From NCBI GenBank assembly GCA_902779165.1, contig CACZAN010000007.1, positions 1-64,000 of the forward strand: 64,000 nucleotides of DNA. Direction: 5' to 3'. The translations under genes were made by a program, and so were the position numbers. Of the stretch, positions 11,238 through 54,851 are shown piece after piece. This stretch comes from an uncultured Bacteroidales bacterium. GTDB taxonomy: Bacteria > Bacteroidota > Bacteroidia > Bacteroidales > Bacteroidaceae. Every line of letters begins with the position of its first letter. Position 1 is the stretch's first letter. The notes beneath the pieces were generated by a model, which saw only the letters and a program-made list of their open reading frames with translations, searched no databases and was not told the origin of the DNA.

Positions 11238-13976
11238 ATGAAGCAAGTAGGTTTTATCATCTTTCTGGTTTGGGCAGTTTCTCTTCCCTTATCAGCTGTT
11301 AAGGTCACAATAAATGATATTCGCTATGAGGTTGACACAATTAGTAGAACGGCCGAAATAGAAAAAGTTTTAGATAGTTATTCATCATATTCAGGAGATA
11401 TTATTATTCCATCTACAATTACTGTAGAAGGTGCAGATTGTAGTGTAATAAGTATAGCTGCAAATGCTTTTTACGGTTGCTCGGCCACGAGCATCACATT
11501 ACCAAATAGTATAAGCAAGATAGGTCGGGCAGCATTCAAGGAATGCGAAAAATTGACCACAATTATACTTCCCGAAAGATTGGATAGTATCTCTGCAGAA
11601 ACATTTTATAATTGTTTTATATTAAAGAATGTTCTCATACCAGAAAACGTCAAATCAATTGGAGATTATGCCTTTTGTAATTGCGTGGAGCTTTCTTTGA
11701 ATATCCCGAGCAGTTTAGAGAAGATCGGTATTGGAGCATTTAGCAATTGTCATGCAATTGAGGATATAATTATCCCCGAAGGAGTTACCGTTATTCCCCA
11801 TTATGCATTCTATTGGTGCGCGTCTTTGAAGTCCGTCATTCTTCCTGAAGGGTTGAAAGAGATAGGGACTTCAGCCTTCTTTGGATGTAAAAATCTAGGT
11901 AATTTGAATATTCCTGAGGATGTTACAATCATTGGTCCTGGCGCCTTTATTGGATGTTCTAGCTTCACAGAGATGAAGATTCCTCAGAAAGTAACACGAA
12001 TAGAAAGCAACACGTTTGAATCTTGTTCGAACTTGAATTCTATTTCATTACCTGATAATATCCGTAGTATCGGAATCGAAGCCTTTCGTAGGTGCAAAGC
12101 ACTAAAAACAATAGATATGTCCAACAATATAGAATATATAGGAACAGATGCATTTAATGATACACCATGGTACCAAAATCAATCAGATGGTCTCTTATAT
12201 ATCGGTCGGGTAGCATACAAGTATCTTGGTGAAATGCCTCCTCAGACAATAATCCAAATCAAAGAGGGGACAAAAAGTATTTCTTCAAATGCATTCGAGA
12301 ATTGTACAGGACTGTCGGAAATCCATATTCCCAATAGTGTATTTGATATCGGTGATTATTGTTTTTCAGGATGTGTCAACTTGTCACATTTTGACACTCC
12401 CGATTCACTAAAAAGTATAGGTGCGTTTTCTTTTAATAGTTGTAAAATGTTGGTGAAAGTAAATCTTCCTCCTCAAGTATCAATGATTGGTCCGTATGCT
12501 TTTGCCAATTGTTACAAATTGAGAAGTGTCAATCTTCCAGATAGCTTACCTTACATTCGTCAATATGCATTTTTGAATTGCGTATCGATTTCTTCCATCA
12601 CCATTCCTAAGAAAGTACAATATATTTCATCGTCAGCTTTCCAGAACAATACTAGTTTAACAACTGTTTATCTTCCTAAGAATAGTTTGGAATGGATATA
12701 TGACAATGCTTTTTCTGGATGTAAGAACCTTTCTGATGTATATTGCCCTGCAACAGTGATACCTAATTTATACAGTTCTGCTTTCAGTAGCACACCTATA
12801 GAATCTGCCACTCTTCATGTTCCTGACACGTGTGTCGAGGCATATCGGAAAGCTGATGGATGGAGCGGATTTGGAAGAATTGTTTCTTTATTAGATAAAC
12901 CTTATCTCACTTTTGTAGATGGTGGTAAATTGTGGAATACGGGAATCATGGCCGATGACGAGTTTTTGAAGCAGTATGAATACCGCTTCTACGGGGATAC
13001 GATTATCAATGGAAGAAGATGCATGGAGTTGATACGGAGTGAATTGATGACGAGGCAGTATGGCGGTACCCAGCCCATAGACACGATCTATGTCGGTGCG
13101 TTGTATGAGGAAGACCAGAAGGTGTATTGTGCTTTCCCAGGCCAGCAGGAGTTCGAGCTCCTCTACGACTTCGCATCGCCTGTGGGTTCGGATGTCGAGA
13201 TTCGTGGCGAACAATTCACTATAGTCCGCAAGGAGATGAGTCAAGAACCAGGATTCAAGGGGAATTGCACCTATCTTCAATTGAAGGGTCAAACGGATGC
13301 ACCCCTTCTGTGCTGGATGGAAGGCATCGGCAACCAGTCTAATCCTTTGGCCCCCCTTTTCTATCGGCATTCAACCGACTTCCAAGATGAAGTTCTGCTG
13401 TTCTGCTCTATCCTCCCCGATGAAATCATTTATTTGAGGGACGAGAGCCTGCCCTCAAATATCGAAGTCAAGAAGCAGTGGCTGGACTTCACGCATACCA
13501 CGAAACCGAGGCCGAAGAGTCCGAAGAAAAATGAAGGCCCCACTCCAACTCTCCCCGTGGGGGCGAGGGATGAGACTGATGGCGAAGAGAACCTGACGGG
13601 TGAGTATTCGGCGAAGGAGCTGTTTGTGAATATGAACTCATTGTCAGGAACTTACAATGTTGCGTTGACGGACGCCATCGGCAACGAGGTGTATCGGAAG
13701 GAGGTGCAGACAAACAACATCGTCGCGCTCAACACCGATCTGACGAAGTACGTCGAAGGGACTTACACCCTCACCATTGAGAATAATGAGGAGCTGTACA
13801 CCGCAACCCTCACCCTCCCTCTCATCGACGATGCCGTCCGCCACTTATCCACTACCCCAAGTTCTAATTCCTCCACTCGCCACTCATACTACACCCTCTC
13901 CGGCCGACGCCTCTCCACCCCGCCGACCCGAAAGGGAGTGTATATCAGAGGCAGGAAGAAGGTGGTGGTGAAGTAA
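11238..13976 (+). CDS. BspA-like leucine-rich-repeat surface protein
   Basis: 912 residues. A signal peptide (MKQVGFIIFLVWAVSLPLSA) is followed by about 20 LRR_5/TpLRR repeats (residues about 60-540) with the signature IPxxVxxIGxxAFxxCxxL. A module of about 150 residues (about 555-720) carries GDTIINGRRCMEL and YVGALYEEDQKVYCAFPG and is shared with the gene at 14683. The last 170 residues are nearly the same as the end of that gene, ending in LSGRRL...GVYIRGRKKVVVK. BspA-type proteins are surface adhesins. The LRR part is clearly AT-richer than the C-terminal third (roughly 40% against 55% GC in sampled rows), suggesting a mosaic gene. Residues 767-779 (GPTPTLPVGARDE) come from a GC-rich palindromic insert absent from the paralog. 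Confidence 0.88.
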   Translation: MKQVGFIIFLVWAVSLPLSAVKVTINDIRYEVDTISRTAEIEKVLDSYSSYSGDIIIPSTITVEGADCSVISIAANAFYGCSATSITLPNSISKIGRAAFKECEKLTTIILPERLDSISAETFYNCFILKNVLIPENVKSIGDYAFCNCVELSLNIPSSLEKIGIGAFSNCHAIEDIIIPEGVTVIPHYAFYWCASLKSVILPEGLKEIGTSAFFGCKNLGNLNIPEDVTIIGPGAFIGCSSFTEMKIPQKVTRIESNTFESCSNLNSISLPDNIRSIGIEAFRRCKALKTIDMSNNIEYIGTDAFNDTPWYQNQSDGLLYIGRVAYKYLGEMPPQTIIQIKEGTKSISSNAFENCTGLSEIHIPNSVFDIGDYCFSGCVNLSHFDTPDSLKSIGAFSFNSCKMLVKVNLPPQVSMIGPYAFANCYKLRSVNLPDSLPYIRQYAFLNCVSISSITIPKKVQYISSSAFQNNTSLTTVYLPKNSLEWIYDNAFSGCKNLSDVYCPATVIPNLYSSAFSSTPIESATLHVPDTCVEAYRKADGWSGFGRIVSLLDKPYLTFVDGGKLWNTGIMADDEFLKQYEYRFYGDTIINGRRCMELIRSELMTRQYGGTQPIDTIYVGALYEEDQKVYCAFPGQQEFELLYDFASPVGSDVEIRGEQFTIVRKEMSQEPGFKGNCTYLQLKGQTDAPLLCWMEGIGNQSNPLAPLFYRHSTDFQDEVLLFCSILPDEIIYLRDESLPSNIEVKKQWLDFTHTTKPRPKSPKKNEGPTPTLPVGARDETDGEENLTGEYSAKELFVNMNSLSGTYNVALTDAIGNEVYRKEVQTNNIVALNTDLTKYVEGTYTLTIENNEELYTATLTLPLIDDAVRHLSTTPSSNSSTRHSYYTLSGRRLSTPPTRKGVYIRGRKKVVVK
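13536..13574 (+). repeat. In-frame GC-rich palindromic element in the LRR protein gene
   Basis: The sequence runs GGCCCCACTCC..CTCCCCGTGGGGG..GAG and reads GPTPTLPVGARDE. The otherwise very similar paralog (17745-17815) has a different, shorter linker at this point. Confidence 0.7.
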
Positions 13977-13979
13977 AAA

Positions 13980-14019
13980 GAAAAAACAAATTTTAACAGA
14001 AAAAGAGCGCACCCGTCAC
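13980..14019 (+). repeat. 40-bp dispersed 3' element, copy A
   Basis: It contains AAAAAACAAATTTTAACAG followed by AAAAAGAGCGCACCCGTCAC. It is 39/40 identical to copy B (21046-21085) and matched in reverse by copy C (31109-31140). It starts three bases after the LRR gene stop. The remaining 190 bases before the next gene are AT-rich with no other feature except the -7 box at 14181. Confidence 0.8.
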
Positions 14020-14180
14020 ATGGTGAATTCATCTTAGAACATCAAAGAAGTAAAAGGCATTTAAAAATGGCGATATAATCAGAAAGTGGCCTCCTGCTGT
14101 AATATTTCTGCTGAAAAGTGTGTATATGTGAATAGGAAGCAATAAATCGATAATTATTTGGCTATATCATATAGAATGAG

Positions 14181-14188
14181 TAGTTTTG
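14181..14188 (+). promoter_or_regulatory. -7 box (TAGTTTTG) for the small lipoprotein
   Basis: TAGTTTTG lies 22 bases upstream of the ATG at 14210. Confidence 0.55.
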
Positions 14189-14209
14189 CATTGTGAAACC
14201 CCTTAAAAT

Positions 14210-14614
14210 ATGACGAAAATGAAAATAAAACAATTATTTGTTCTATTGGCATATTTTGTAATGCTGACCTGCGTTATTATATCCTGTGGTAGTGATAAGG
14301 AATCAGACCAGTCTTTCATCAACCTTACAGCTGTAGGGCAATATGTAGAAGATAAGGATGATCTGAGTGGCATCATCAGCTACAACAACTCCACTGATAA
14401 ATGGTTCATACAGGTACCGGTGGAAGGTTCGATAGATCATGTCGCGTACTATTATCCCATTCAGATAGAGCCGTTTTTTTGTAACGATAGGTTGAGAGTC
14501 CGCTTTTCCGGGAAAGTGTATCAGCTGGATGAAACACTAAAGTCACAGATTCCCCAAATGGGTGGGTGTGATTATTATGCTATCCAATTAACACGAATCA
14601 TTAGAGACGATTAA
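14210..14614 (+). CDS. Small lipoprotein of unknown function
   Basis: 134 residues. The N-terminus MTKMKIKQLFVLLAYFVMLTCVIISCGSD contains a lipobox (IISC), so the protein should be lipid-anchored. The mature part of about 105 residues has alternating hydrophobic strands and aromatic residues (WFIQVPVEGSIDHVAYYYPIQIEPFF), which suggests a small beta fold. No family was recognised. It is AT-rich like the front halves of its two neighbours and lies between them with its own promoter box and its own short 3' gap, so it is probably transcribed separately. A role together with the neighbouring surface proteins is only a guess. Confidence 0.7.
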   Translation: MTKMKIKQLFVLLAYFVMLTCVIISCGSDKESDQSFINLTAVGQYVEDKDDLSGIISYNNSTDKWFIQVPVEGSIDHVAYYYPIQIEPFFCNDRLRVRFSGKVYQLDETLKSQIPQMGGCDYYAIQLTRIIRDD

Positions 14615-14643
14615 TACTCTCACTTATTTGTGTGATTCATACC

Positions 14644-14651
14644 TACCTTTG
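14644..14651 (+). promoter_or_regulatory. -7 box (TACCTTTG) for the modular secreted protein
   Basis: TACCTTTG lies 32 bases before the ATG at 14683. The predicted leader is about 25 bases. Confidence 0.65.
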
Positions 14652-14682
14652 CCATATCATCTCATAAAAAACACTTTTGTAT

Positions 14683-17600
14683 ATGAAACGTTTATTAATA
14701 TCATCACTTTTCTCCTTTATCTGCTTAGGAAGTTATCTCCTCGCAGACGAAGAGGAATATGCATCCTTTATAGTTAATAATTCAGGTATTGACTCCTGTG
14801 CTATCGGGCTTCCCGTAATTACCTCTGCAGAGCAATCCGTAACACAGTCCATTCAACAACAATGGACTATGCTTCCAGGAGAGCAATGCACGAAATTGAC
14901 ATACTATGGCTATAATCCTGGCAAAGCCATCACTCGGCATTTTGAAGTTTGGATGGGACGTATAGACGATTTTGCCTTTTTTGTCCAAAATCTTTTTGTC
15001 CCTAAAGAAAAACTCCAAAAGGTATTTGATGGAGAATGTACAATTGTACAAGGAGGAAGTAATGAAGAACCTATAGCGTTGTTGGAAATACCTTTTGATG
15101 TACCTTTTATAGCAAATAACTATACCTATACATGCATACAGATTTTGAGTTCCGGTGAAGCGACCAACGATGTTTTCTTTCAAGTCTGCAATAGTGGCAA
15201 AGGATTATATACGATTGGTTCATCCGGAGAACAACAAACGGTCAACGATGTTGCAATCGATTACACTATCAAGAGCAAAGTAAACCATTATTTGGGAAAT
15301 GTCAAGAATCAAGAGAGCAGGCCAATAGCAGAAGCTAAGATTATTATGAAAAGCAATTATGCTCAATATGAGACTGCAACAGATGAAGCAGGCAACTTCG
15401 ACATCTCCATTACAAGAGATTGTAAATATGACTGTCTTGTAATGGCTTCTGGCCATACATTTTTCTATGAGTCACATGCGCAGTTCCTTCCTAATCTTCC
15501 CATACAATATGAGCTCTTCGATAAGTTTAGCTACAAAGCAGGTAAACGTTATACTATCATGCTACCTTACGAACCCAACGCGGAGGTCGGCAAATACTTT
15601 CGCTTTGACCGTGTGGAGGGTAGCATGTTTATCTTTGAAAGAGAATTTGCCCCCCAAGCTAATTGCCCCTATGTTTTCGTTCCTTCAAAGGATATGCAGC
15701 TTGATGTGAATGGGTTAGAATTGTCTTTAGAACCTATATGCATAGAGATTGATAAAGTCAGATTCATTGGAGCTTATGGTCAATCTTTCATGGTAGTGTC
15801 GACAAATAATGCATCATGGCATGGGGAGAATCCCGTCCATGACGGCCAAGAGATGTCAGGAACCTATCTCCCACTACAAGGTGTTCTCTATTGGGATTCC
15901 ATGCAATATCCTGGAGCAGAATTAGTTTTCAACGATCCCACCCCCACTTACCGCCCCTTCATTGAAGAGGGCAAGCGTTGGACCTATGTCCGCACTCCTG
16001 ATCATCCCGCTTATAGCCCTTACTTCTATGAGTATTATTTGGAAGGGGACACGGTCATCGGCGGACAGAAATGTCTGAAATTGTTTTCGGAGAACGAATA
16101 CAATGATAACAAAGTCATCTATAAAGGATCGTTGTACGAAGAAGATAAGAAAGTGTACGCCTTTCTCCCTGAACAGGGAACTGCGGACCTACTCTACGAT
16201 TTCGGGTGCGAAGTCGATGATGAAATTTGTGTTTCCGAAGGAAGAATGTTGGTCACAGACATCATTCAGAGGGAGTATGACGGTATGACCTTGCGCTTTT
16301 ATAACTTATTATGGTTATCAGATGATGGAATGCATAATGTAGATGGATGTGTATGGGTTGAGGGCATCGGTGGACTGATAGACTTTTTCCAAACGGTACC
16401 AACTATCGGTAGTTCTAAATGGCTATATCGCTGCGAAGTGAATGGTGAAGCACTCTATCGATATGAGTATGTACAGCCGAAGTACACAGAGGAGGATTAC
16501 CATGAAATGGCAATAGAGGGCAAGACGTGGAACTACATCCACCATTATATAGACGAAAAGGGTACACATGTTGAGGAACCTTACTCCTATGTGGTGAAGG
16601 GTGATACCATCATTGAACAGAAGATTTGTAAGAAACTCTATTATCAGGATTCCCAAACGGAAAGATTCGTTTGTGCCTTATGGGAAACTGGTCGTGACTT
16701 GATGAAACGACCTTCTGGAAGTGATTCGTGGCAAAGAACATATCAGTTTGGACGTACTGACATAGGCCGAGTCTTCGATTGGGACTCTAAACAGGGAACA
16801 GGCCGAGTCTTCTGGATGCTCCACGACAGAGACACCATCACAGTGAACGGAATGGATTACTATCGCCTTACATTCTATAGTAAAACCATTGATGGAGGTA
16901 CGACAGGTATGCTCACGACTATAGAGGACGGCCCTGATGTATGGCATGAGATATGGGTGGAAGGTGTCGGCTCAGAGCTAAACGGCATCGAAGATCCTGT
17001 ACATGAGAAACCTCTGAATAACGAGGACTACACGCGCTTTGTGTCATGTTATGAGGACGGCGTTTGTATATTCACCGCCAATGACTTCAGGATGGAGAAG
17101 CCCGACCCCGCCACCACCTACCGCCCCTTCATTGAAGAGGGGAAGGTGTGGAAGGTGGGATCTCCTGATTTGCTGGGTGAAATCTACTGTCTGGATACTT
17201 ACTATTTTGAAGGAGACACAATTGTGGGCAACAAGACTTGCAAGAAGATGATGTGCCATACCGAATGGAAAGAGTCTTATGGCCACGAACCATGGACCGG
17301 ATATGTTGGGGCATTGTACGAAGAGAGCAAGAGAACATATATTGCTCATCCTGGCAGCCAGCAGTTCGTCCTCCTCTATGACTTCGCCGCACCTGTTGGC
17401 ACAACTATCGATTTCTACGACGGCTACGAGCAAATGCCCTCATCCTGCCTTATCAGCAAAAAGTATATGAGTACAGATAGCATCTTTCATGGAATGGTGA
17501 CAGAGATAAAGATGTATGACCCAGATCTGCAACTCATGACCTCGACGACTTATAGTGAATGGAGAGAAGGCGTTGGATATAACTGCATACAGAATGTTTA

Positions 17601-18189: not shown

Positions 18190-18229
18190 GCGACATACAA
18201 GCTTCTTTCCTGTAGTTATATATTTTGCA

Positions 18230-18271
18230 AACCACCCGTCGGCATCAGTTTTCTGACGGGTGGTTTTTTAT
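18230..18271 (+). terminator. Rho-independent terminator
   Basis: AACCACCCGTC and GACGGGTGGTT form a perfect 11-bp stem with a 14-base loop, followed by TTTTTTA. It ends the transcript of the gene stopping at 18189. Confidence 0.9.
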
Positions 18272-18385
18272 GTGGCCAACTGTTTTTTGTTAGTGAGTGT
18301 TCTCTTTCCACCCCCTAACCTTGAAAATTTCCATGAGGCGCAAGGAGGGGCTGACTTTAAAAGTCTTGATGTCTGTGGATTATAC

Positions 18386-18393
18386 TACTTTTG
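18386..18393 (+). promoter_or_regulatory. Upstream -7 box (TACTTTTG) for the GH95 gene
   Basis: The first of two boxes before the GH95 gene. CCATGAGGC occurs twice around it (near 18332 and 18409) and might be a regulator site. Confidence 0.4.
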
Positions 18394-18445
18394 TCTAAAT
18401 GAAAAACTCCATGAGGCAGGTATTGCCTAAACGATAATTATTCCA

Positions 18446-18453
18446 TAACTTTG
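18446..18453 (+). promoter_or_regulatory. Proximal -7 box (TAACTTTG) for the GH95 gene
   Basis: TAACTTTG lies 41 bases before the ATG at 18494. Confidence 0.65.
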
Positions 18454-18493
18454 CAGCAAGTTTCAACTATTATTCATTTCTATTATTCACAAC

Positions 18494-28813: not shown

Positions 28814-28815
28814 CT

Positions 28816-34208: not shown

Positions 34209-35729
34209 ATGAATAAGAGTAATTGGCGCTGGTGGCTGTGCGGCCTTCTCTTTGTCGCCACCACAGTAAACTATCTCGACCGACAGGTCCTTTCGCTGAC
34301 ATGGAAGGACTTTATAGCACCAGAGTTTCATTGGACGAACTCCGATTACGGTAGCATTACCGCCGCTTTCTCGTTGTTCTATGCTTTCGTCAGTCTCTTT
34401 TCAGGAAAGTTCATCGACTGGGTCGGCACGAAGAAAGGGTATCTCATCGCTATCTTTGTCTGGAGCTTGGGTGCTTGTCTGCATGCGGGTTGTGGTTGGT
34501 TGACGATGCACATCCATGGCTTGGAGAGCGTGGAAGCACTGAGACTGGTGGAGGCAGGCAGCACGCTGGCACTCGCCATCTCGACCACCAGCGTGTGGCT
34601 TTTCATGGTCTGCCGTATGGTGCTGGCTGTCGGTGAGAGCGGTAACTTCCCTGCTGCCATCAAGGTCACGGCTGAATACTTCCCCAAGAAAGACCGGGCA
34701 CTGGCCACCAGTATTTTCAATTCCGGAGCTTCTGTGGGAGCCTTGGTGGCACCTGTCACCATCCCCTTCCTTGCCAGCGCCTACGGCTGGGAGTGGGCTT
34801 TCATCATCATCGGTGGTCTTGGTTTTCTGTGGATGGGCTTTTGGTATTATATGTATGAGAAGCCTGAGCAGAGCCGGCACGTGAATGAAGCGGAGCTGGA
34901 GTATATCAATCAGGATGAGATAGACTCTCCCCCCGCCCTCCCTGTTAGGGAGGGAGCAGAATGTGAAGAGCAGGCATCCGCTTCGCAATCCTCGATTGTA
35001 TCCGCTCCCTCCCTAACAGGGAGGGCGGGGGGAGAGTCTGAATCCTCTGGCATTTCTATTTGGAAATGCTTCACCATCCGTCACACTTGGAGCTATATCT
35101 GTGGCAAGTTCTTCACCGATGGTGTCTGGTGGTTCCTGCTTTTTTGGGCACCCGCCTACTTCAGCGACCAGTATGGCTACCGCAGTGACTCAGCGATGGG
35201 TGCCACGCTCATCTTTATCGTTTATCTCATTGTTACCCTTGTCAGTATCGCTGCCGGTGGCTATCTGCCCAAGTACTTCATCGAACGACGTGGTATGGAA
35301 GCGTATGCAGGACGACTGCGTGCTATGTTGATGTTTGCCTTCCTGCCTGTCTTCTCCCTCTTCGCGCAACCGTTGGGCGCTTACAGCGCTTGGTGGCCGG
35401 CTATCATCATTGGCTTGGCAGGCGCAGGACACCAGTCGTGGTCTGCTAACCTTTACAGCACCGTAGGCGACATGTTCCCCAAGAGTGCTGTTGCAACGAT
35501 TACAGGAATCGGAACGATGACTGGTGGCATCGCCTCTTTCGCTATCAACAAAGGAGCCGGTTGGCTCTTCGACTATAGTGATGCACAAGGTTCCGCCTTC
35601 CAATTCCTCGGCTTCGAGGGAAAGGAAGCAGGCTATATGATAATCTTCTGCTATTGTGCTGTCGCTTACCTTATTGCTTGGGCGTGTATGAAGACGCTCG
35701 TACCACGTTATAAAAAGGTGGAGCTCTGA
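34209..35729 (+). CDS. exuT: MFS hexuronate transporter (ExuT-like) with a palindrome-encoded loop
   Basis: 506 residues with 12 predicted membrane segments. The start WRWWLCGLLFVATTVNYLDRQVLSL and the motif-A-like GKFIDWVGTKKGY are typical of ACS-family hexuronate permeases, as is GESGNFPAAIKVTAEYFPKKDRALATS. It imports hexuronates by proton symport for the neighbouring uxaC/uxuA pathway. The central cytoplasmic loop between segments 6 and 7 contains an insert of about 40 residues (about 238-278, with PPALPVREGAE and APSLTGRAGGES), encoded by a perfect 36-bp inverted repeat. Family members normally have a much shorter loop here. Being in a loop, the insert probably leaves transport intact. 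Confidence 0.9.
   Translation: MNKSNWRWWLCGLLFVATTVNYLDRQVLSLTWKDFIAPEFHWTNSDYGSITAAFSLFYAFVSLFSGKFIDWVGTKKGYLIAIFVWSLGACLHAGCGWLTMHIHGLESVEALRLVEAGSTLALAISTTSVWLFMVCRMVLAVGESGNFPAAIKVTAEYFPKKDRALATSIFNSGASVGALVAPVTIPFLASAYGWEWAFIIIGGLGFLWMGFWYYMYEKPEQSRHVNEAELEYINQDEIDSPPALPVREGAECEEQASASQSSIVSAPSLTGRAGGESESSGISIWKCFTIRHTWSYICGKFFTDGVWWFLLFWAPAYFSDQYGYRSDSAMGATLIFIVYLIVTLVSIAAGGYLPKYFIERRGMEAYAGRLRAMLMFAFLPVFSLFAQPLGAYSAWWPAIIIGLAGAGHQSWSANLYSTVGDMFPKSAVATITGIGTMTGGIASFAINKGAGWLFDYSDAQGSAFQFLGFEGKEAGYMIIFCYCAVAYLIAWACMKTLVPRYKKVEL
34922..35039. repeat. Perfect 36-bp inverted-repeat element inside exuT
   Basis: AGACTCTCCCCCCGCCCTCC begins the left arm (34922-34957) and the right arm (35004-35039) is its exact reverse complement, with a 46-base centre. 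Each arm also holds its own palindrome CCCTCCCTGTTAGGGAGGG. The whole element reads as exuT codons. Confidence 0.95.
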
Positions 35730-48033: not shown

Positions 48034-48215
48034 AAAGTAAATAAATGAAAGGTGAAAGGATGAACAGTGGCAAACATAAATCACCAAAGTCTGTTAAGGT
48101 ACAGATGGCAGACAACTTTCGTAAAAAGCAAATAGCAGAGAGTTCTCCAAAAGGAGTGACTGCCGTCCGAGAAAACTCCCTTTTTCCACTCTCCATTCTT
48201 TCACTTTTCACTTTC
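48031..48215. repeat. GTGAAAAGT-type repeats in inverted orientation bracketing the DUF6057 gene 5' end
   Basis: AAGTGAAAAGTAAATAAATG at the M60 stop and CTTTCACTTTTCACTTTCTT at 48197-48216 are inverted copies of the same simple repeat. The sequence between them encodes a hydrophilic N-terminus not shared by the paralog at 51453. Confidence 0.55.
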
Positions 48216-49718
48216 TTTGCCCTCTCCTGGCTGTGGGCTGGGTGGTGGATGGGCGACACGTTACGCATTGCTTATGAGCGTTCGTTCTTTGCCGCCGATG
48301 CCACCTTAATGCATTGGCTGTGGCAGCAGTCATTTGGCTCTCTCTGGATCCTTGGTCGCGCCTTGCTGACGCTCTACCACTGGCCTGTCGTAGGGGGATT
48401 GCTGGTAGCTTCCTTATTGACAGCGGGCTCCCTCCTGTTTGGCTACTGCCTGCGTCTGCCCAAGCGATGGAGGTGGATTCAGTATCTTCCAGCTGGAGCA
48501 TGGATGATTTGGGTATCTTGGTCCGGACTTGACCTCTTCTTCATGCATGAGCCAGGACGAATTCTTGGGATTCCCCTGTTGGCGGTACTGGTTTGCCTGA
48601 TGGACGCTGTGATTATCTGGAGTTTCAAGAGAAGAAGGCCAGCCTCCAGCAGCCCCACCCCCAACGCTTCGCGGGATGGGGTGAGAGCGGGGCTTTTCGG
48701 TCTTTTGGTAGTAGTCCTTTTATTCCTTCTCCCCTGTTTGCTTCTCAATCAACGCCACCCCTATCTCCGTCCATTAATGCGGATGCAGGTGCAGTTGTTG
48801 CATGATGACTATGCAGGAATGTCAGCCACAGCCCACGAAAATGCTTCGTTGAGCTATAGGCCTCTTGCAGCTTACTATGCTGTCGCCCTTACACGTCAGG
48901 GAACGATTGCCGAGCAGCTATTCGACGTTCGTCTGGAGTATGACAGCATCTGTGTTCATGACTATGATGGCGACCCGGATTTAGGGGGTAACTATTATCT
49001 TATCGACTGTGACTACCATTCGGGCCTTATCCGTCCGGCCATGCACCGTGCTGTGGAGGAACTGACGATGGACGGTCCTTCGCTGTTCACGTTGAAGTAT
49101 CTGGCGAAGATGTCGCTGATTGAAAACGATTGGGCGTTGGCACGCAAGTATTTCCACATCCTGCATCAGGCGCCTTTTGAAGGTGAGTTCCTTGCTAAGT
49201 ATGAGCCGATGTTAGATCGTCCCGACCTCGTGCAGGCCGACCCTGAGTTTGCTGGTGTCCTGAAGGCGGCTCCCATCCAGGATTCTTTCGAAAGTTTTTA
49301 CGAGAAACCTTGTTTCCTGGGATATCATGCAGTGACGTCCTCTGGCCGCACGATGGAAGCCCTCACGCTGAGCGTGATGGCCAATCTCTACAGCAAAAGA
49401 ATGCCCGATTTTCTGATGCGTTGTCAGCCGTTTGTAGGCACTACCCCCCCACGTTCCATTGCTGAAGGACTTATCACACAGACTCAGAAACATCCAGAGA
49501 TATTGCAGGCCTTCCCGCAATTGCAGATGGATGCACAGCGTTTCCGCGGTTTCATTCAGGTGGCACAAAACTATATGCAAGACCGTCCGCGAGGGGCAGA
49601 GGTTCTCTTCAACCAGTTCTGTGGTTACTATCCCTACTACTATTTCTTCGGCAACCTTCGCGCTACCCGAAAGAGTGGGGATTCGGAGAAAGAACACTCG
49701 AAAGCGGGGGTGAATTAA
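48045..49718 (+). CDS. DUF6057-like polytopic membrane protein, copy 1
   Basis: 557 residues. A hydrophilic N-terminus of about 45 residues, which looks repeat-derived, is followed by about six membrane segments (about 50-245, for example LSWLWAGWWMGD, LLVASLLTAGSLLFGYCL, LFGLLVVVLLFLLPCLLL). The soluble helical part of about 310 residues starts LNQRHPYLRPLMRMQVQLLHDDY and ends YYPYYYFFGNLRA. It is about 55-60% identical by eye to the protein at 51453. The family is known from Bacteroidales but its function is not. It stands immediately before a CxxCH/PD40 lipoprotein gene, and this pair is repeated. The linker SSPTPNASRDGVRAGLF before the last membrane segment comes from a GC-rich palindrome. 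Confidence 0.75.
   Translation: MKGERMNSGKHKSPKSVKVQMADNFRKKQIAESSPKGVTAVRENSLFPLSILSLFTFFALSWLWAGWWMGDTLRIAYERSFFAADATLMHWLWQQSFGSLWILGRALLTLYHWPVVGGLLVASLLTAGSLLFGYCLRLPKRWRWIQYLPAGAWMIWVSWSGLDLFFMHEPGRILGIPLLAVLVCLMDAVIIWSFKRRRPASSSPTPNASRDGVRAGLFGLLVVVLLFLLPCLLLNQRHPYLRPLMRMQVQLLHDDYAGMSATAHENASLSYRPLAAYYAVALTRQGTIAEQLFDVRLEYDSICVHDYDGDPDLGGNYYLIDCDYHSGLIRPAMHRAVEELTMDGPSLFTLKYLAKMSLIENDWALARKYFHILHQAPFEGEFLAKYEPMLDRPDLVQADPEFAGVLKAAPIQDSFESFYEKPCFLGYHAVTSSGRTMEALTLSVMANLYSKRMPDFLMRCQPFVGTTPPRSIAEGLITQTQKHPEILQAFPQLQMDAQRFRGFIQVAQNYMQDRPRGAEVLFNQFCGYYPYYYFFGNLRATRKSGDSEKEHSKAGVN
48651..48694 (+). repeat. In-frame GC-rich palindromic element in DUF6057 copy 1
   Basis: The sequence begins AGCCCCACCCCCAACGC and ends GAGCGGGGCT. 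It reads SPTPNASRDGVRAG in a loop where the paralog has an unrelated sequence. Confidence 0.6.
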
Positions 49719-49812
49719 GGTTGAAAAGTTGAAAGGTTGAAAAGTTGAAAGGTTGAAAGGTTGAAAAGTTCCCATGAGCCCTATAAGCCCCATGAGTCCC
49801 ATGAACCCCAAT
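49719..49812. repeat. Tandem GGTTGAAAAGTTGAAA repeat plus CCCATAAGCCCC repeat, copy 1
   Basis: Five to six 10-base units of (G)GTTGAAA(A) run from 49719 to 49770. CCCATGAGCCCTATAAGCCC-type units follow to 49808. The same block recurs at 53088-53163. Confidence 0.8.
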
Positions 49813-49825
49813 TAATAATTAATCC

Positions 49826-51442
49826 ATGCGCTGCAATTATACATTCTTGAAGTGTCAAGCGAGCAAGCTCGAGCGATACATTATACATTATACATTCGCC
49901 ATCGCATCGACGATGGCGCTACTTGCCTGCAGTTCCCGTCCTTCTGCTATTCCTGCGACCTTCACGGAACTGACTGACAGCGCTACAGTCTATCCTGACT
50001 ACCGCGATGTAACCATTCCGCCGAATATTGCGCCACTGAACTTTATGGTCACCGATGCCTCGGCCAGCGAGTTCGTTGCTGAGGTGGGAGGTATTGTCTG
50101 TGGCGCGAACAAGGACGGCAAGTTTGATATCGATACCATCGCTTGGCGCCAGCTACTCGCCGGCAGTAAAGGAAAGGACGTTCGAGTGAATGTCTATGCC
50201 CACCGCGAAAACGGATGGGTACAGCAGCCCGCGTTCTCATTTCATGTGGCTGCGGAGGATATTGACGGATACCTCTCATACCGCCTTATTGAGCCGGGCT
50301 ACGAGCTCTATCGGCAGATAGGTCTTTATCAGCGTAACCTGACGAACTTCACTCAGACAACCATCTACGAGAACAACCGCACTTTTGATGGCGGCAAGAA
50401 CCATTGCGTCAACTGTCATAACTATCAGAACTACGACACAGAGCGGATGCTGTTCCATGTGCGCGCTGCTCATGGAGGTACTGTCGTCACGCATGGTAGC
50501 AAGGCTCATAAGATTGCCATTAAGCACGACAGCATCCTCGCAGCAGGCGTTTATCCCAGTTGGCATCCCACCCTGCCTCTTGTGGCATTCTCCACCAACA
50601 AGACCGGGCAGGTCTTTCATCTCCTGCACCCGGAGAAGATAGAAGTTCTGGATACAGAGTCCGACCTTATCCTGTATGATGCCGACCGCAATGAAGTGAA
50701 GAATGTCCTCCGCACCACTGATTTTCTGGAGACCTTCCCTTGTTGGACTCCTGATGGACGACGCCTGTTCTATTGTTCTGCACGTGTGCCTCAATACGAT
50801 GCACCTACTTTAGATGTTGGTCTCACAACTCGCTATGATAGCCTGCTCTATGATATCTATTCCATGTCATTTGATCCCGAGACTCGCTCTTTTGGCGAGC
50901 CGCGGCTCGAGGTGGATGCCAGCTCGAAGGGAATGAGCTGTAGCGTGCCGCGCATCAGTCCCGACGGACGCTATCTCCTTTATACCCTTGGGCAATACGG
51001 ACAGTTCCACATTTGGCACAAGACTGCAGATCTGTGGGTGAAGACGTTGAACGATGATAGTTTAGATGTGAGTGAAGAGAACTGTTATCCCCTTTCCGCA
51101 GCAAATTCCTCAGATGCCGACAGCTATCACACTTGGTCCTCTAATGGTCGATGGATTGTCTTCAGTTCCCGGCGCGATGATGGTAATTTCACCCGTCCTT
51201 ATATTGCTTATTTCGACCAAACGGGTCAGGCTCATCGACCCTTCATGCTGCCGCAGCGTGATCCTGAGTACAACCTCTTGCTACTCAAGAGCTACAATGT
51301 ACCGGAGCTCACCCGTTCTGCCGTGCGCGTATCAATTGAAGAACTGAACCATGTCGTGCGGCACACCGAGGCAGAGTTGGCTACTTTTCAAGGACCCGCC
51401 CCTGAACCCCTCTCAGGGAAGGGAGAAGCCTCCGGACAATAA
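49826..51442 (+). CDS. Lipoprotein with CxxCH haem motif and PD40/TolB-like propeller, copy 1
   Basis: 538 residues. The lipobox LLAC gives Cys35. The N-terminal domain has VYPDYRDVTIPPNIAPLNFMV and runs to about residue 160. One c-type haem motif CVNCH lies at 194-198 (HCVNCHNYQNYD). The rest is a beta-propeller with PD40-like blades (WHPTLPLVAFSTNKTGQVF, TPDGRRLFYCSARVP, SPDGRYLLYTLGQYG, SSNGRWIVFSSRRDD). Together with the membrane partner just upstream this suggests an exported monohaem redox or sensing protein at the outer membrane. That is inference. The signal peptide core (YIIHYTFAIA) is encoded by a TTATACATTATACATT repeat. The C-terminus (GPAPEPLSGKGEASG) is encoded by a palindromic element. 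Confidence 0.82.
   Translation: MRCNYTFLKCQASKLERYIIHYTFAIASTMALLACSSRPSAIPATFTELTDSATVYPDYRDVTIPPNIAPLNFMVTDASASEFVAEVGGIVCGANKDGKFDIDTIAWRQLLAGSKGKDVRVNVYAHRENGWVQQPAFSFHVAAEDIDGYLSYRLIEPGYELYRQIGLYQRNLTNFTQTTIYENNRTFDGGKNHCVNCHNYQNYDTERMLFHVRAAHGGTVVTHGSKAHKIAIKHDSILAAGVYPSWHPTLPLVAFSTNKTGQVFHLLHPEKIEVLDTESDLILYDADRNEVKNVLRTTDFLETFPCWTPDGRRLFYCSARVPQYDAPTLDVGLTTRYDSLLYDIYSMSFDPETRSFGEPRLEVDASSKGMSCSVPRISPDGRYLLYTLGQYGQFHIWHKTADLWVKTLNDDSLDVSEENCYPLSAANSSDADSYHTWSSNGRWIVFSSRRDDGNFTRPYIAYFDQTGQAHRPFMLPQRDPEYNLLLLKSYNVPELTRSAVRVSIEELNHVVRHTEAELATFQGPAPEPLSGKGEASGQ
51392..51436 (+). repeat. In-frame GC-rich palindromic element at the C-terminus of propeller copy 1
   Basis: GGACCCGCCCCTGAACCCC..CAGGGAAGGGAG reads GPAPEPLSGKGEASG just before the stop. 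The paralog ends in an unrelated acidic tail. Confidence 0.7.
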
Positions 51443-51452
51443 TCACTGACGT

Positions 51453-53087
51453 ATGAAAAAGAGCAATAATAGTACAAAGAATAATTCACGACCTACAGCA
51501 TCGCGCCAACCTTCTTCCTTCCTTTATTGGAGGGGCTTGGGAGTGGGCCTCCTTTTCTTTCTTCTCTCCTGGCTGTGGGCCTCATGGTGGATGGGTGATG
51601 TGTTTCGTATCGCCTACGAACGCTCGTTTATTGTAGCCGACAGCACGCTGATGTTCTGGTTGTGGCAAAAGTCCTTCGGGTGGTTGTGGATAATAGGGCG
51701 TGCGCTGCTCATCATGTATCGTTGGAAAATAGTGGGTGGATTGCTGGTGGCTGTTCTCCTGACAGTCGGTTCCTGGCTCTTTGGTTATTATCTGCGACTG
51801 CCGCAGCGGTGGCGTATCCTACAATTCCTGCCGGCTTCTCTTTGGATGCTATGGACAGCGAAGGTGGGACTGAACCTCTTCTATATGCACGAGCCTGGGC
51901 GCATCCTTGTCTTCCCCTTCCTCCTTTTTGTGGTATGTGCGATTTGGGCCGGAATCGTTTGGCGCTTGAAGAGAAGCAAGCCAAGTTTCCCAAATCTGAC
52001 GAGTAGTACCAGTTCTCCTGAGACTCCTCGTTCTTCTCGTAAGTTGAGAACCCTCCAGGCTTTGGCTTATGTGGTTGTTCTTATAGCCTTCTTTGCCGTT
52101 CCCATGTTTTATCTCAATCATCGCCACCCTTATTTGCGTCCCTTGACCAAGATGCAGGTGCAGCTGCTGCATGAGGACTACGAAGGCATCTCGCGCACGG
52201 CCCACGAAAATGCAAACTTGAGCTACCGGCAAATGGCAGGCTATTATGCCCTTGCCCTTGCCCGTTTGGGACGACTGGGTGACCAACTCTTCGATATTAA
52301 ACTGGATTTCGATACCCTCCACACCTATGGTTACCACAACCAGCATACCAACAGTATGAACTATCATATCATCGACTGTGACTATCATGCTGGTCTTATC
52401 CGTGCAGCCCGTCATTACGCAGTGGAATCTCTGACGATGGATGGGCCTTCGTTGTTCTCCATAAAATATATGATAAAGATTTCTCTTATCGAGGGGGACT
52501 GGGTGCTCGCCCGTAAGTACCTTCATATCCTTCATAAGGTACCTTTCGAGAGCGATTTCATCAACAGATATGAACCGATGGTCGGGCGAGCGGACTTGGT
52601 CCAGGCAGATCCTGAGTTTTCGGCCATTATGGCAACCCTCCCACCTTATCATACCTTTGAACAAATGGACTTGAAACCTGGTTTCATCGGTTTTTATGCA
52701 GGTTTGAGATCCTTCAACAGTTCCGAAACGCTGATATGGAGTGCAATGGCCTGTCTATACAGCAAACGCATAGATGCCTTCCTGATGCGTTGCAAGAAAC
52801 TGAAAGGTACTTCGCTCCCGCGTTCTATTGCCGAAGGGCTCATTGTTGCTGCCGGCAAGGAGCCTGCGATACTACAAGAATTCCCGCAGCTGCAGATGGG
52901 GGCGGAACGCTACTACCTCTTCTTGCAAGCAGCACAGCCATACATGAATGATCGGGAGCGAGGCAGCGAGGTGCTCTTCGAGCAATACAAGGGCTACTAT
53001 CCTTACTACTATTTCTTCGGGAACATCCGCTCATCACAGAAACCCGATGAAGAAGACGAGGGACATCACAAAGCGGGAGTTAATTAA
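51453..53087 (+). CDS. DUF6057-like polytopic membrane protein, copy 2
   Basis: 544 residues. After a Ser/Asn/Thr-rich N-terminus it shows the same six membrane segments (LSWLWASWWMGD, LLVAVLLTVGSWLFGYYL, VVVLIAFFAVPMFYLN) and soluble region as the gene at 48045. Shared blocks are NHRHPYLRPLTKMQVQLLHEDYEG, MDGPSLFSIKYM and YYPYYYFFGNIRS. It begins 10 bases after the stop of the first propeller gene, so the four genes are probably one transcript. YWRGLGVGLLF at residues 25-35, just at the first membrane segment, is encoded by a half-copy of the GC-rich palindrome. Function is unknown. A complex with the CxxCH lipoprotein is suggested by the conserved pairing. Confidence 0.75.
   Translation: MKKSNNSTKNNSRPTASRQPSSFLYWRGLGVGLLFFLLSWLWASWWMGDVFRIAYERSFIVADSTLMFWLWQKSFGWLWIIGRALLIMYRWKIVGGLLVAVLLTVGSWLFGYYLRLPQRWRILQFLPASLWMLWTAKVGLNLFYMHEPGRILVFPFLLFVVCAIWAGIVWRLKRSKPSFPNLTSSTSSPETPRSSRKLRTLQALAYVVVLIAFFAVPMFYLNHRHPYLRPLTKMQVQLLHEDYEGISRTAHENANLSYRQMAGYYALALARLGRLGDQLFDIKLDFDTLHTYGYHNQHTNSMNYHIIDCDYHAGLIRAARHYAVESLTMDGPSLFSIKYMIKISLIEGDWVLARKYLHILHKVPFESDFINRYEPMVGRADLVQADPEFSAIMATLPPYHTFEQMDLKPGFIGFYAGLRSFNSSETLIWSAMACLYSKRIDAFLMRCKKLKGTSLPRSIAEGLIVAAGKEPAILQEFPQLQMGAERYYLFLQAAQPYMNDRERGSEVLFEQYKGYYPYYYFFGNIRSSQKPDEEDEGHHKAGVN
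51529..51552 (-). repeat. Half GC-rich palindromic element in DUF6057 copy 2
   Basis: GGAGGGGCTTGGGAGTGGGC ends in CTCC. The minus strand (GGAGGCCCACTCCCAAGCCC) aligns with the left arm found at 13536. Confidence 0.6.
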
Positions 53088-53170
53088 GGTTGAAAGGTTG
53101 AAAAGTTGAAAGGTTGAAAGTTCCCATGAGCCCTATAAGCCCCATGAGTCTCACGAACCCGAATAAAAAA
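53088..53170. repeat. Tandem GGTTGAAA repeat plus CCCATAAGCCCC repeat, copy 2
   Basis: A shorter copy of the block at 49719-49812, again between the membrane-protein gene and the propeller gene. Confidence 0.8.
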
Positions 53171-53177
53171 TTAATCC

Positions 53178-54851
53178 ATGCGCAGCAATTATACATTCTT
53201 GAAGTGTCAAGCGAGTAAGCTCGAGCGATACATTATACATTATACATTCGCCATCGCAGCAATGATGGCTCTACTTGCCTGCAGTTCCCGTCCTTCTGCT
53301 ATTCCTGCGACCTTCACGGAACTGACGGACAGCGCTGTAGTCTATCCTGACTACCGCGATGTGACCATTCCGCCGAATATTGCGCCGCTGAACTTCATGG
53401 TGATGGATTCTGCAGCCTGCGAGTTCGTTGCTGAGGTGGGATGCATCGTCTGTGGCGCGAATGAGGACGGCAAGTTTGACATCGATACCACCGCTTGGCG
53501 CCAGCTTCTCGCAGACAGCAAGGGGAAGGAGGTCCGGGTGAACGTCTATGCCCACCGGGTGAATGGATGGGTGCGGCAACCCGCCTTCTCGTTCCAGGTG
53601 GCAGCGGAAGAAATTGATCCCTATGTCACTTATCGTCTTATCGAACCAGGATATGAGGTCTATTTCCAGCTTGGAATCTACCAACGGAACCTGACCAACT
53701 TTGATGTCACGACCCTCTATGAGAACGAACGTACGGATCACACCCGCAGCCACTGTATCAACTGTCATCAGTTCCAGAACTACGACACACAGAGAATGTA
53801 TCTCCATGTGCGAGAGAATAATAAAGGAACGGTGATTACCCATGGGACCGAGGCGCATAAGATGCTGATCAGGCACGACAGTATCGTAGCCTCTGGCGCT
53901 TATGGCGGTTGGCACCCTACGCTTCCCATTATTGCCTTCAGCAGTAATAAGACGGCACAAGTGTTCCACTATCATTACAACGAAAAGATAGAGGTGTATG
54001 ATGCGGAATCCGACATTATCCTCTATGATGCCGACCGCAATGAGGTGCGAAACATCATCCGTACTCCAGATTACTTCGAGACCTTCCCCTACTGGTCGGC
54101 CGACGGCACACGCCTTTACTACTGTTCGGCACGTGTGCCTAAGTTCGAATCTACCAACTTCGAGGCCAGTCTTGTCCTGCGTTTCGACAGCCTGCACTAT
54201 GATATCTATTCCATGCCTTTCGATACGGTAACTTATACTTTCGGTGAACCCAGACTGGAGGTGAATGCCAGTGCCCAGGGACTCAGCGCCAGCGTGCCTC
54301 GTCCCAGTCCCGACGGACGCTATCTACTCTTTGCCCTTGCGCGCTATGGCCAGTTCCACCTCTACCATAAGGATTCTGATTTGTGGGTGAAGGATTTAAG
54401 ACCCACCCCCGCCCCCTCCCGTAAGGGAGAGGAGTCCTCCGGGTCGTCTGAGGGTGACCGTACTCCCCTCTCTAACGGGAGTAGCTTGGGTGAGGGCCTT
54501 TACCCATTAACCGCCACCAATTCCCCAGAGGTCGAGAGCTACAGCTGTTGGTCCTCGAATGGACGGTGGGTGGTCTTCAGTACCCGCCGCGATGATGGTG
54601 ACTTCACCCGCACCTACATTGCCTACTTCGATGCTCAGGGACAGGGCCATCGTGCTTTCATCCTTCCACAGCGCGACCCGGAATACAATTTGCTCCTTCT
54701 GAAGAGTTATAATGTCCCTGAACTCACTCGTACCGCTATCCCTATCACTCAGGAACAGATGAACCACGTCATCCGGCACACGGAATCAGAACTGGCCACT
54801 TATATTGATGAAGCATCACCTCAGAATGCGGAGTCGGGTGACAAAAAGTGA
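53178..54851 (+). CDS. Lipoprotein with CxxCH haem motif and PD40/TolB-like propeller, copy 2
   Basis: 557 residues and the same architecture as the gene at 49826: lipobox Cys35, VYPDYRDVTIPPNIAPLNFMV, haem motif CINCH at 193-197, and PD40 blades (WHPTLPIIAFSSNKTAQVF, SPDGRYLLFALARYG, SSNGRWVVFSTRRDD). The first 55 residues are almost identical to copy 1 while the rest has diverged more, which hints at recent duplication or gene conversion of the 5' ends. An insert of about 33 residues (about 408-440, LRPTPAPSRKGEES...TPLSNGSSLGEG) stands where copy 1 has about 11. It is encoded by a double palindromic element. The two copies are the last and second genes of a four-gene run. Confidence 0.82.
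   Translation: MRSNYTFLKCQASKLERYIIHYTFAIAAMMALLACSSRPSAIPATFTELTDSAVVYPDYRDVTIPPNIAPLNFMVMDSAACEFVAEVGCIVCGANEDGKFDIDTTAWRQLLADSKGKEVRVNVYAHRVNGWVRQPAFSFQVAAEEIDPYVTYRLIEPGYEVYFQLGIYQRNLTNFDVTTLYENERTDHTRSHCINCHQFQNYDTQRMYLHVRENNKGTVITHGTEAHKMLIRHDSIVASGAYGGWHPTLPIIAFSSNKTAQVFHYHYNEKIEVYDAESDIILYDADRNEVRNIIRTPDYFETFPYWSADGTRLYYCSARVPKFESTNFEASLVLRFDSLHYDIYSMPFDTVTYTFGEPRLEVNASAQGLSASVPRPSPDGRYLLFALARYGQFHLYHKDSDLWVKDLRPTPAPSRKGEESSGSSEGDRTPLSNGSSLGEGLYPLTATNSPEVESYSCWSSNGRWVVFSTRRDDGDFTRTYIAYFDAQGQGHRAFILPQRDPEYNLLLLKSYNVPELTRTAIPITQEQMNHVIRHTESELATYIDEASPQNAESGDKK
54400..54498. repeat. In-frame double GC-rich palindromic element in propeller copy 2
   Basis: GACCCACCCCCGCCCCCTCC opens the left arm (to about 54436). 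The right arm (about 54461-54498, ACTCCCCTCTCTAACGGGAG...GGTGAGGGCC) is a degenerate inverted copy. The paralog has no such sequence. Confidence 0.85.

What the first reader, a model, noticed from the sequence alone, without database searches (positions are those of the whole stretch)
13536..54498. A family of GC-rich palindromes inserted in frame in at least five genes (protein-coding palindromic elements)
Seen directly: related GC-rich, C-then-G sequences at 13536-13574, 34922-35039, 48651-48694, 51392-51436, 51529-51552 and 54400-54498. They follow roughly GRCCCWCYCC..CCCCTCCC-n-GGGAGGGGA. All lie inside coding sequence, none adds a stop, and in the left-arm orientation all are read in the same frame as Pro-Thr/Ala-Pro-rich peptides (GPTPTLPVG, PPALPVREG, SPTPNASRDG, GPAPEPLSGKG, RPTPAPSRKG). 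All sit in loops, linkers or termini. Known comparison: Rickettsia palindromic elements behave this way. Inference: a mobile small repeat in this lineage spreads through proteins by having one frame that encodes harmless linkers.
Basis: partly seen in the sequence, partly recalled or inferred. Interest (0 to 1): 0.85.

Follow-up and report, generated by a model that had tools for sequence, protein, structure and literature searches.

The report
Nuclease-linked coding palindromes in bacterial genes
Short GC-rich palindromes sit in frame inside ordinary bacterial genes, and they appear to be the ends and shrunken copies of a mobile element that carries a small DNA-cutting enzyme (DUF559), which would give such protein-coding repeats a visible driver.

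Summary
In the window 34922-35039 is a full element, 54400-54498 a decayed one, 51392-51552 a probable decayed one across a gene junction; 13536-13574 and 48651-48694 do not stand out. The own genome holds 112 strict copies of the core palindrome (control 0). Of 34 sampled copy groups 14 lie inside called genes and 19 at or within 28 nt of gene ends. Orthologues carry, lack or hold another insert at the same site.

The new result is the partner. The same palindromes, inverted, flank a small gene, DUF559 (PF04480), kin to homing endonuclease I-Bth0305I: 136 of 142 mostly best-scoring loci of Prevotella-like Bacteroidales (shifted controls 0 of 133 and 3 of 295). Palindrome load follows DUF559 count, not RAYT count. 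Closely related DUF559 elements occupy different gene junctions. Elsewhere in Bacteroidota DUF559 lies in frame inside LeuRS, MetH and HsdR. I conclude that the palindromes are ends and non-autonomous derivatives of a DUF559 mobile element. How it moves is inferred, not shown. Ten full-text searches of open-access papers gave no description of it.

The parts
34209..35729 (+). host gene: MFS transporter, 506 aa, with the element in its central linker (aa 238-277)
   Evidence: Pfam MFS_1 14-444, E 1.2e-52; insert absent in G018 (L062, 92% identity), present or varied in others
34922..34960 (+). left arm of a full family-A element (outer end AGACTCTCCCCCCG, stem CCCTCCC..GGGAGGG)
34961..35000 (+). 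short middle of the element, where full-length relatives carry the DUF559 gene
   Evidence: compare the 483-nt element at G000:C2
35001..35039 (-). right arm, inverted copy of the left arm
   Evidence: 97% complementary to the left arm; 39.7 bits
53178..54851 (+). host gene (PD40 beta-propeller family protein) of the decayed element
54400..54440 (+). left arm of a decayed element, read RPTPAPSRKG
   Evidence: E 4e-4 in 464 kb; 20.7 bits
54455..54498 (-). right arm of the decayed element
   Evidence: 10.2 bits, 3 of 4000 random windows reach it
51392..51436 (+). probable left arm remnant at the end of ORF 49826-51442 (GPAPEPLSGKG)
   Evidence: 8.0 bits, 5 of 4000 random windows reach it
51500..51552 (-). 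probable right arm remnant near the start of ORF 51453-53087, mate of 51392-51436
   Evidence: 5.0 bits, 9 of 4000 random windows reach it
   Evidence: no profile hit, fold z -0.39
   Evidence: no profile hit, fold z -0.62

Best explanation
The palindromes are the two ends, and the internally deleted copies, of a mobile element built as: C-rich hairpin arm - gene for a small Vsr/EDxHD-type endonuclease (DUF559) - the same arm inverted. Shown: arms flank nearly every DUF559 gene tested in this genus and its kin, the two arms of one element tend to match each other, short copies share arms and some sub-terminal sequence with the full element of the same genome, sites are polymorphic, closely related DUF559 elements sit at different gene junctions, and DUF559 is under purifying selection. 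Shown too: the arms can be read without stops in the frames used; at gene junctions an ATG at or just behind the DUF559 stop often opens a frame through the right arm into the next gene. Inferred: DUF559 cuts or nicks DNA and this drives copying of the element (homing-like, or hairpin transposition without target duplication); short copies are moved in trans; insertions that break genes are lost by selection, so those that keep a frame or fall at gene ends remain.
For: Flanking inverted repeat (score 30 or more): 65 of 72 genus loci against 0 of 133 shifted controls; 78 of 80 named Bacteroidales loci against 3 of 295; pooled and made distinct 136 of 142. For 53 of 142 left arms the own right arm scores best of all 142, for 85 it is among the best three. 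Own genome: the 483-nt DUF559 element at G000:C2 has the same 35-nt arm, letter for letter, as short elements in the window, L005, L011 and L132; six other arms in five loci also share sequence past the arm, 27 nt in L005. Palindromes per genome track DUF559 count in 121 genomes (rho 0.65; partial on genome size 0.57, p 1e-11), not Y1/RAYT count (partial 0.07, p 0.42). Mobility: DUF559 of L019, L142 and L101 differ by dS 0.15-0.35; L101 lies between other genes than the other two, and L101 and L142 are two copies on one contig of G094. Polymorphic sites: MFS, PurL. Nuclease kinship: 3hrl (2.9e-31) and I-Bth0305I 3r3p (1e-7) by profile, and the same two first by model. A Caulobacter DUF559 protein (VsrA) is reported to be required for a DNA-damage response (PMC12907096, passages). 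dN/dS median 0.082 in 15 pairs. ATG restart: 80 of 122 against 254 of 710 random positions; in 57 of 122 the ATG lies within 6 nt of the stop.
Against: No movement was observed, and no empty site is close enough to show an exact junction; no target-site duplication. 7 of 37 genomes without a DUF559 hit still have 20 or more palindromes, one of them 129, and 5 of 84 with DUF559 have 0-2; the genomes are drafts (57-100% complete), so absences are weak. The correlation is not corrected for kinship. Arms are shared between elements too: 134 of 720 cross pairs also reach 30. In three genomes reached through named isolates the strict palindrome is rare: 3 (P. denticola), 10 (P. veroralis) and 1 (P. 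lacticifex, control 6). In the wider phylum only 19 of 30 loci, and on plasmids 9 of 14, have matched arms. Most loci tested were the best-scoring DUF559 hits, not a random draw. Association does not prove that DUF559 is the mover rather than a passenger.
Confidence: 0.72

Rival explanations
1. DUF559 is a passenger or parasite of the palindromes: an unknown host process (replication slippage, template switching at hairpins, or another transposase) spreads the hairpin pairs, and the nuclease gene lodged in one of them and homes into others.
For: Some genomes have many palindromes and no DUF559 found. Other unrelated palindromes occur in the same permissive loops of PurL and the MFS protein, so hairpin-forming insertions are not unique to this family.
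Against: Near-constant association in this genus and its kin (136 of 142), and in part elsewhere (19 of 30 in Bacteroidota, 9 of 14 plasmid loci), with arms that tend to match within an element; a passenger would be expected to sit in foreign arms more often.
Confidence: 0.15
2. The palindromes are REP/REPIN elements moved by RAYT (Y1/HUH) transposases.
For: Same general look: short hairpins in inverted pairs, no target duplication. Y1 genes exist in 51 of 121 genomes, and 21 of 32 Y1 loci tested also have flanking inverted repeats, 2 of the 32 with a C-rich arm by a loose pattern (L357, L366).
Against: Those repeats are mostly of other families (e.g. GCGTGCCTTTAGGTACGCGACA), and palindrome load does not follow Y1 count once genome size is allowed for (0.07, p 0.42). 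The three own Y1 loci carry none of the strict palindromes. GTAG follows the stem in 28 of 120 arms and CGTC occurs in 4 of 120, so neither tag is general.
Confidence: 0.05
3. They are hairpins that regulate or terminate transcription around DUF559 and other genes, not mobile elements.
For: Many copies lie at or within a few bases of gene ends, and strong hairpins there could act on mRNA.
Against: 14 of 34 own-genome groups are inside called genes (9 of 34 by a stricter coding test); the same arms occur at unrelated sites and come and go between species.
Confidence: 0.05
4. Ordinary Pro/Gly-rich linker sequence that converged on C-rich and G-rich codons; chance.
Against: 112 palindromes against 0 control; identical arms at unrelated loci; empty and filled orthologues.
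Confidence: 0.02

Closest known systems
Rickettsia palindromic elements (RPE); coding palindromes of Wolbachia and Methanocaldococcus (the last two seen as reference titles only)
   Same: About 100-150 nt, palindromic, found in frame in unrelated protein genes as well as between genes (PMC2229807 and PMC3733652, passages).
   Different: Other sequences, other phylum. The passages I read name no driver for RPEs and report 19 reading frames; here a nuclease gene sits between the same arms, and full and short copies coexist. I did not test RPEs for a DUF559 partner.
REP/REPIN with RAYT (TnpA-REP)
   Same: Inverted pairs of short hairpins, a protein gene flanked by them, many non-autonomous copies, no target duplication.
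   Different: The protein is a Vsr/EDxHD-type nuclease, not a Y1/HUH enzyme; many arms are translated; RAYTs of the same genus mostly have other repeats. Intragenic REPs are on record in some species (PMC3733652, abstract and passages).
EDxHD / Vsr-like homing endonucleases (I-Bth0305I)
   Same: Closest solved relatives by sequence and by model: 3r3p, besides 3hrl. Selfish-gene logic fits.
   Different: No intron or intein found: no Rfam match at gathering scores in 14 DUF559 loci, no intein family among Pfam matches at E 1e-8 in 15 proteins. The element is flanked by hairpins and exists in many ectopic copies. Cleavage is not shown.
Inteins
   Same: A nuclease domain inserted in frame in essential or conserved proteins (LeuRS, MetH, HsdR).
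   Different: No splicing domain found; the insert seems to stay in the protein, tolerated in a loop.
MITEs of DDE insertion sequences
   Same: Short internal-deletion copies with the terminal inverted repeats of a larger coding element.
   Different: No target-site duplication at 2-9 nt in 44 elements; the coding gene of the full copies is DUF559, not a DDE transposase.

Membership tests
Protein-coding palindromic repeats (RPE-like) | palindromic repeat of about 100-150 nt in many copies | tested here: met
   118-nt element in the window; 112 core palindromes in the genome
Protein-coding palindromic repeats (RPE-like) | in-frame insertion in genes of conserved proteins, absent in orthologues | tested here: met
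   two sites with empty and filled orthologues; further host genes
Protein-coding palindromic repeats (RPE-like) | sequence kinship with Rickettsia RPEs | not tested
   not compared; membership by descent is not claimed
REP/REPIN-RAYT | associated Y1/HUH transposase flanked by the repeat | tested here: not met
   three own Y1 loci lack the strict palindrome; genus Y1 loci mostly have other repeats, no partial correlation
REP/REPIN-RAYT | GTAG or CGTC tag beside the stem | tested here: not met
   GTAG after the stem in 28 of 120 arms, CGTC anywhere in 4 of 120
REP/REPIN-RAYT | mainly extragenic | tested here: not met
   14 of 34 groups inside called genes, 15 more overlap a gene end
DDE-transposon MITE | fixed-length target-site duplication | tested here: not met
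   44 elements: direct flank identity at 2 nt 2 observed, 1.57 expected; 0 at 3-9 nt. Inverted flank identity is slightly raised (13 against 8.0 at 2 nt), from the A that precedes GAC in 80% of ends
EDxHD homing endonuclease | homology of the nuclease domain | tested here: met
   3r3p at 1e-7 by profile and Foldseek 9.1e-5
EDxHD homing endonuclease | cuts the empty allele and is copied into it | not testable with these tools
   needs biochemistry or a cross
EDxHD homing endonuclease | carried by a self-splicing intron or intein | tested here: not met
   no Rfam match in 14 loci; no intein family at E 1e-8 in 15 proteins. Free-standing homing endonucleases lack this too (recalled)

The most novel reading that the evidence does not exclude
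DUF559, a widespread 'domain of unknown function', is the engine of a class of mobile element not yet described: a Vsr-type nuclease gene between two translatable hairpins that invades protein-coding genes in frame without any splicing device, either at gene junctions, where it supplies a new start codon for the next gene, or inside conserved enzymes such as LeuRS, MetH and HsdR, and that seeds genomes with short coding palindromes in several phyla. The unexplained coding palindromes of other bacteria may have had drivers of this kind.
Probability: 0.45. Interest if true: 0.95.

Novelty: new variant of a known kind. Interest (0 to 1): 0.86.

Why it matters
Protein-coding palindromes have been known since the Rickettsia work, but the passages read here name no mover for them. 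If DUF559 moves these, there is a defined enzyme and a defined substrate, so the question of how DNA repeats enter proteins becomes testable. It would also give a role to a common domain of unknown function, explain recurrent Pro/Gly-rich N-terminal and linker peptides (PSLTGRAGGES, PLPVREG and the like) that can mislead gene-start annotation, and show a route by which protein length and linkers evolve through selfish DNA without splicing.

Tried and rejected
RAYT as mover: three Y1 hits in the own genome, none with the strict palindrome; genus-wide test negative. GIY-YIG as an alternative partner: in 25 relatives most hits lie in frames of about 600 aa, as expected of UvrC, with a few short frames, one of them in the genus (G010); flanks not tested. 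Target-site duplication: none. Other perfect palindromes: 24 in 464 kb of own sequence against 1 in a resample, of other families; not pursued. Self-splicing RNA: none. A first strict scan of unselected stretches found too few copies for frame statistics (15 hairpins), so I used the pattern hits listed on contigs C1-C15, the first listed on C16, and stretches around them; one search listed only part of its 112.
Two frame tests differ. With 150-nt coding windows 34 groups gave: 9 in frame on both sides, 13 'opposite strands', 7 one side only, 4 same strand with frame change, 1 same frame with a stop. With gene groups gave 18 interior, 7 C-terminal, 4 N-terminal, 5 both, 5 without overlap; I drop here the five groups of L268-L271, which came from a protein-similarity list, leaving 34: 14, 7, 4, 4, 5. 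The duplicate filter also dropped one arm of the DUF559 element (G000:C2:19049). The method cannot see a gene broken by an insert; of the four junction-spanning groups three are flanked by separate genes by Pfam (two AMP-binding proteins; truA-like and EamA; a DNA polymerase III subunit and MTHFR), and for the fourth (L266) I scanned one neighbour and one ORF that is not the neighbour, both without a hit, so it is untested.
Full report
WHAT WAS CLAIMED AND WHAT STANDS. The element at 34922-35039 is beyond doubt: two 39-nt arms 97% complementary, fold z = -14.15, in frame in a 506-aa MFS transporter. The one at 54400-54498 is a decayed pair. The two stretches at 51392-51552 are best read as one decayed pair that spans a gene junction. 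The stretches at 13536 and 48651 do not stand out from the arm profile's background or from shuffles.

THE FAMILY IN THE OWN GENOME. The genome (3,589,683 bases, 75 contigs) has 112 strict palindromes CCCTCCC-N(2-14)-GGGAGGG and none of the reversed control. A typical full unit is A-GACTCTCCCCCCG-CCCTCCCTGTTAGGGAGGG-AGCAGAATG, a middle, and the same inverted. Palindromes listed on contigs C1-C15, the first on C16 and one on C20 form 34 copy groups: 14 inside a called gene, 4 at a gene start, 7 at a gene end, 4 spanning a junction, 5 without overlap, of which four lie 3-28 nt from a gene and one 896 nt away beside a contig end (less the five groups of L268-L271 picked through protein similarity). 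Two of the near-gene ones read by eye as N-terminal extensions, of a peptidyl-tRNA hydrolase-like start (L014) and a ValRS-like start (L265) (names not from Pfam). A stricter coding test found 9 of 34 in frame on both sides. Interior hosts with Pfam matches include PurL, AcrB/AcrD (one domain, 45-1107, spans the insert at 458-503), MFS_2 (25-479, insert 280-301), MutS2 (MutS_V before, Smr behind), an epimerase and altronate dehydratase; and, from the similarity list, HisRS, a DHH protein and a HATPase. Of the 17 interior ORFs scanned, three had no Pfam match at the E-value used (L254, L252, L263). No clear gene break was seen, but the method could miss one.

POLYMORPHISM. Among 19 MFS sequences (own included) the element is present in G000, a variant in G015, a decayed form in G019 and perhaps G016, an insert of another family at a nearby place in G024, and none of this kind in, for example, G018 (92% identity), G017, G001 and two other genera of the order. 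In PurL, of 30 loci examined (own included), G000 and G019 share a family-A element, G120 has a different C-rich palindrome pair at the same place, and the other 27 have no C-rich pair: most have short unrelated loops, some have other palindromes. So these are insertions in permissive loops.

THE PARTNER GENE. One own-genome pair (G000:C2:19049-19505) holds about 400 nt between its arms, and this encodes a DUF559 protein. The second strong DUF559 gene (G000:C30) is flanked by another palindrome family, CTCCCCCCGTGGGGGGGAG: it is fused in frame to IspG (GcpE 30-401, DUF559 432-537), and a CysS-like frame (named by eye) appears to start just behind the DUF559 stop and to read through the right arm. 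A third, weak PF04480 hit in the own genome (8.3e-4) was not pursued. PF04480 is found in 84 of 121 genomes of the genus. I aligned the left flank with the reverse complement of the right flank (350 nt each): 65 of 72 loci reach a score of 30 (the 2 own, 30 given by the search, 40 fetched; the higher-scoring hits), against 0 of 133 shifted controls in the same loci and 134 of 720 cross pairs. Of 80 loci from named records (best 80 of 580 relatives; mostly rumen Prevotellaceae and Bacteroidaceae MAGs, with Prevotella lacticifex, P. denticola and P. veroralis) 78 reach it, against 3 of 295 controls. Pooled and made distinct: 136 of 142; the own right arm is the best of all 142 for 53 and among the best three for 85. 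Arms differ between elements but tend to match within an element.

FULL AND SHORT COPIES. The 483-nt DUF559 element has the same 35-nt arm, letter for letter, as short elements in the window, L005, L011 and L132. Six other arms in five loci also share sequence past the arm, mostly 11-14 nt, 27 nt in L005; L005 matches on the other side too (83%). In 44 paired elements found by pattern in the loci held, 14 are 108-179 nt, one about 250, and 29 are 460-610 nt (the share of long ones is set by how the loci were fetched). This is the usual relation of a non-autonomous to an autonomous element.

MOBILITY OF THE FULL ELEMENT. DUF559 of L019 (own genome) and L142 (record JAFXTO010000017.1) share the upstream gene (97.7% identity) and, by eye, the downstream permease, so they are one old site. 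L144 and L147 share a further junction, L145 has yet another. So related full elements occupy different junctions. Of the 15 close pairs, most share at least one flanking gene, as expected of inherited sites. DUF559 is under purifying selection: 15 pairs with dS below 1.2 have dN/dS 0.041-0.141, median 0.082.

DISCRIMINATING THE DRIVER. Over 121 genomes the palindrome count follows DUF559 count (rho 0.65; median 33.5 in 84 genomes with, 3 in 37 without; counts taken by hand, own genome set to 2 because its third hit is weak). With genome size held: 0.57 (p 1e-11). The Y1/RAYT count gives rho 0.22 (p 0.015) raw and 0.07 (p 0.42) with size held, and the Y1 genes mostly have inverted repeats of other kinds (21 of 32 loci with a repeat, 2 with a C-rich arm). 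No correction for kinship was made. Against the reading: seven genomes without DUF559 have 20 or more palindromes, up to 129, and five with DUF559 have 0-2.

WHAT DUF559 IS. The profile of 18 domains finds 3hrl (endonuclease-like protein, 2.9e-31), 3r3p (mobile intron protein, 1e-7) and PvuRts1I (0.003). An AlphaFold2 model (mean pLDDT 86.2) finds 3hrl, then the catalytic domain of homing endonuclease I-Bth0305I, and weakly Vsr. In Caulobacter a DUF559 protein, VsrA, is reported to be needed for a DNA-damage response in cells lacking a cytosine methyltransferase; its authors read it as a repair enzyme (PMC12907096, passages only), which is a different role from the one proposed here. No self-splicing RNA family matches 14 DUF559 loci.

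HOW THE HOST GENE SURVIVES. In 122 elements where DUF559 stops before the right arm, 80 have an ATG behind the stop that opens a frame through the right arm and at least 30 codons further (random positions 254 of 710), and in 57 this ATG lies within 6 nt of the stop. In some cases DUF559 is fused to the upstream frame (9 of 139 have 100 or more in-frame residues upstream, 10 downstream, 1 both), for instance IspG and a phosphoglycerate mutase. In the wider phylum, where 170 of 296 genomes have DUF559, 11 of the 30 loci given have it inside a frame with 100 or more residues on both sides: LeuRS twice, HsdR four times (one also with a GIY-YIG domain), MetH and a Type ISP enzyme with Pfam matches on both sides, HsdM and an N6/N4 methylase with matches upstream only, and one (L225) without another match. 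Matched arms are found in 19 of these 30 loci against 1 of 56 controls. On plasmids of Cyanobacteriota, Deinococcota and Pseudomonadota 9 of 14 fetched loci have them, controls 1 of 28; in Pseudanabaena galeata DUF559 lies in the frame of an Eco57I-like methylase.

MECHANISM, WITH WHAT IS SHOWN AND NOT. Shown: architecture, matched arms, polymorphism, ectopic copies, selection on the nuclease, translatable arms, restart codons, no target duplication (44 elements; an A precedes GAC in 80% of 88 ends). Inferred: that DUF559 cleavage starts copying; that the arms, as hairpins, are its recognition or repair structure; that short copies move in trans; that the lack of broken genes is selection after insertion. 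I put 0.72 on the element reading as a whole, lower on any particular chemistry.

NOVELTY. The short copies are a new case of a known kind (protein-coding palindromes). The link to DUF559 I have not found in print: searches, open-access PMC papers only; 14 papers name DUF559, of which I read passages of one and saw the rest as a listing. Subscription papers were not searched, so this is a limited statement. Other papers used: PMC3733652 and PMC6006769 (abstracts and passages), PMC2229807 (passages).

Noticed in passing
L062 (MFS linker), L310 and L321 (purL loop): Orthologues without the C-rich element hold other near-perfect palindromes in the same loop (seen by eye), as if several kinds of hairpin enter the same permissive sites.
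   Followed up: no
L346-L366 and L016; L132, L133, L139: Many Y1/RAYT-like genes of the genus carry inverted repeats of their own, e.g. GCGTGCCTTTAGGTACGCGACA, and related TAGGTACGCGACA palindromes are scattered in the own genome.
   Followed up: partly
L244: A HsdR protein carries both a GIY-YIG and a DUF559 domain in frame.
   Followed up: no
L210 (Prevotella lacticifex), about 3312-3700: DUF559 followed by a tandem array of about four copies of the right end.
   Followed up: no
window 59829-60010: Cluster of overlapping inverted repeats around GAGTTCCACTGGTGGAACTC; similar ones in L132 and L135.
   Followed up: no
L105, L154, L178, L342: Some DUF559 loci have much longer flanking inverted repeats (score 144-235), with several hairpins in a row.
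   Followed up: no
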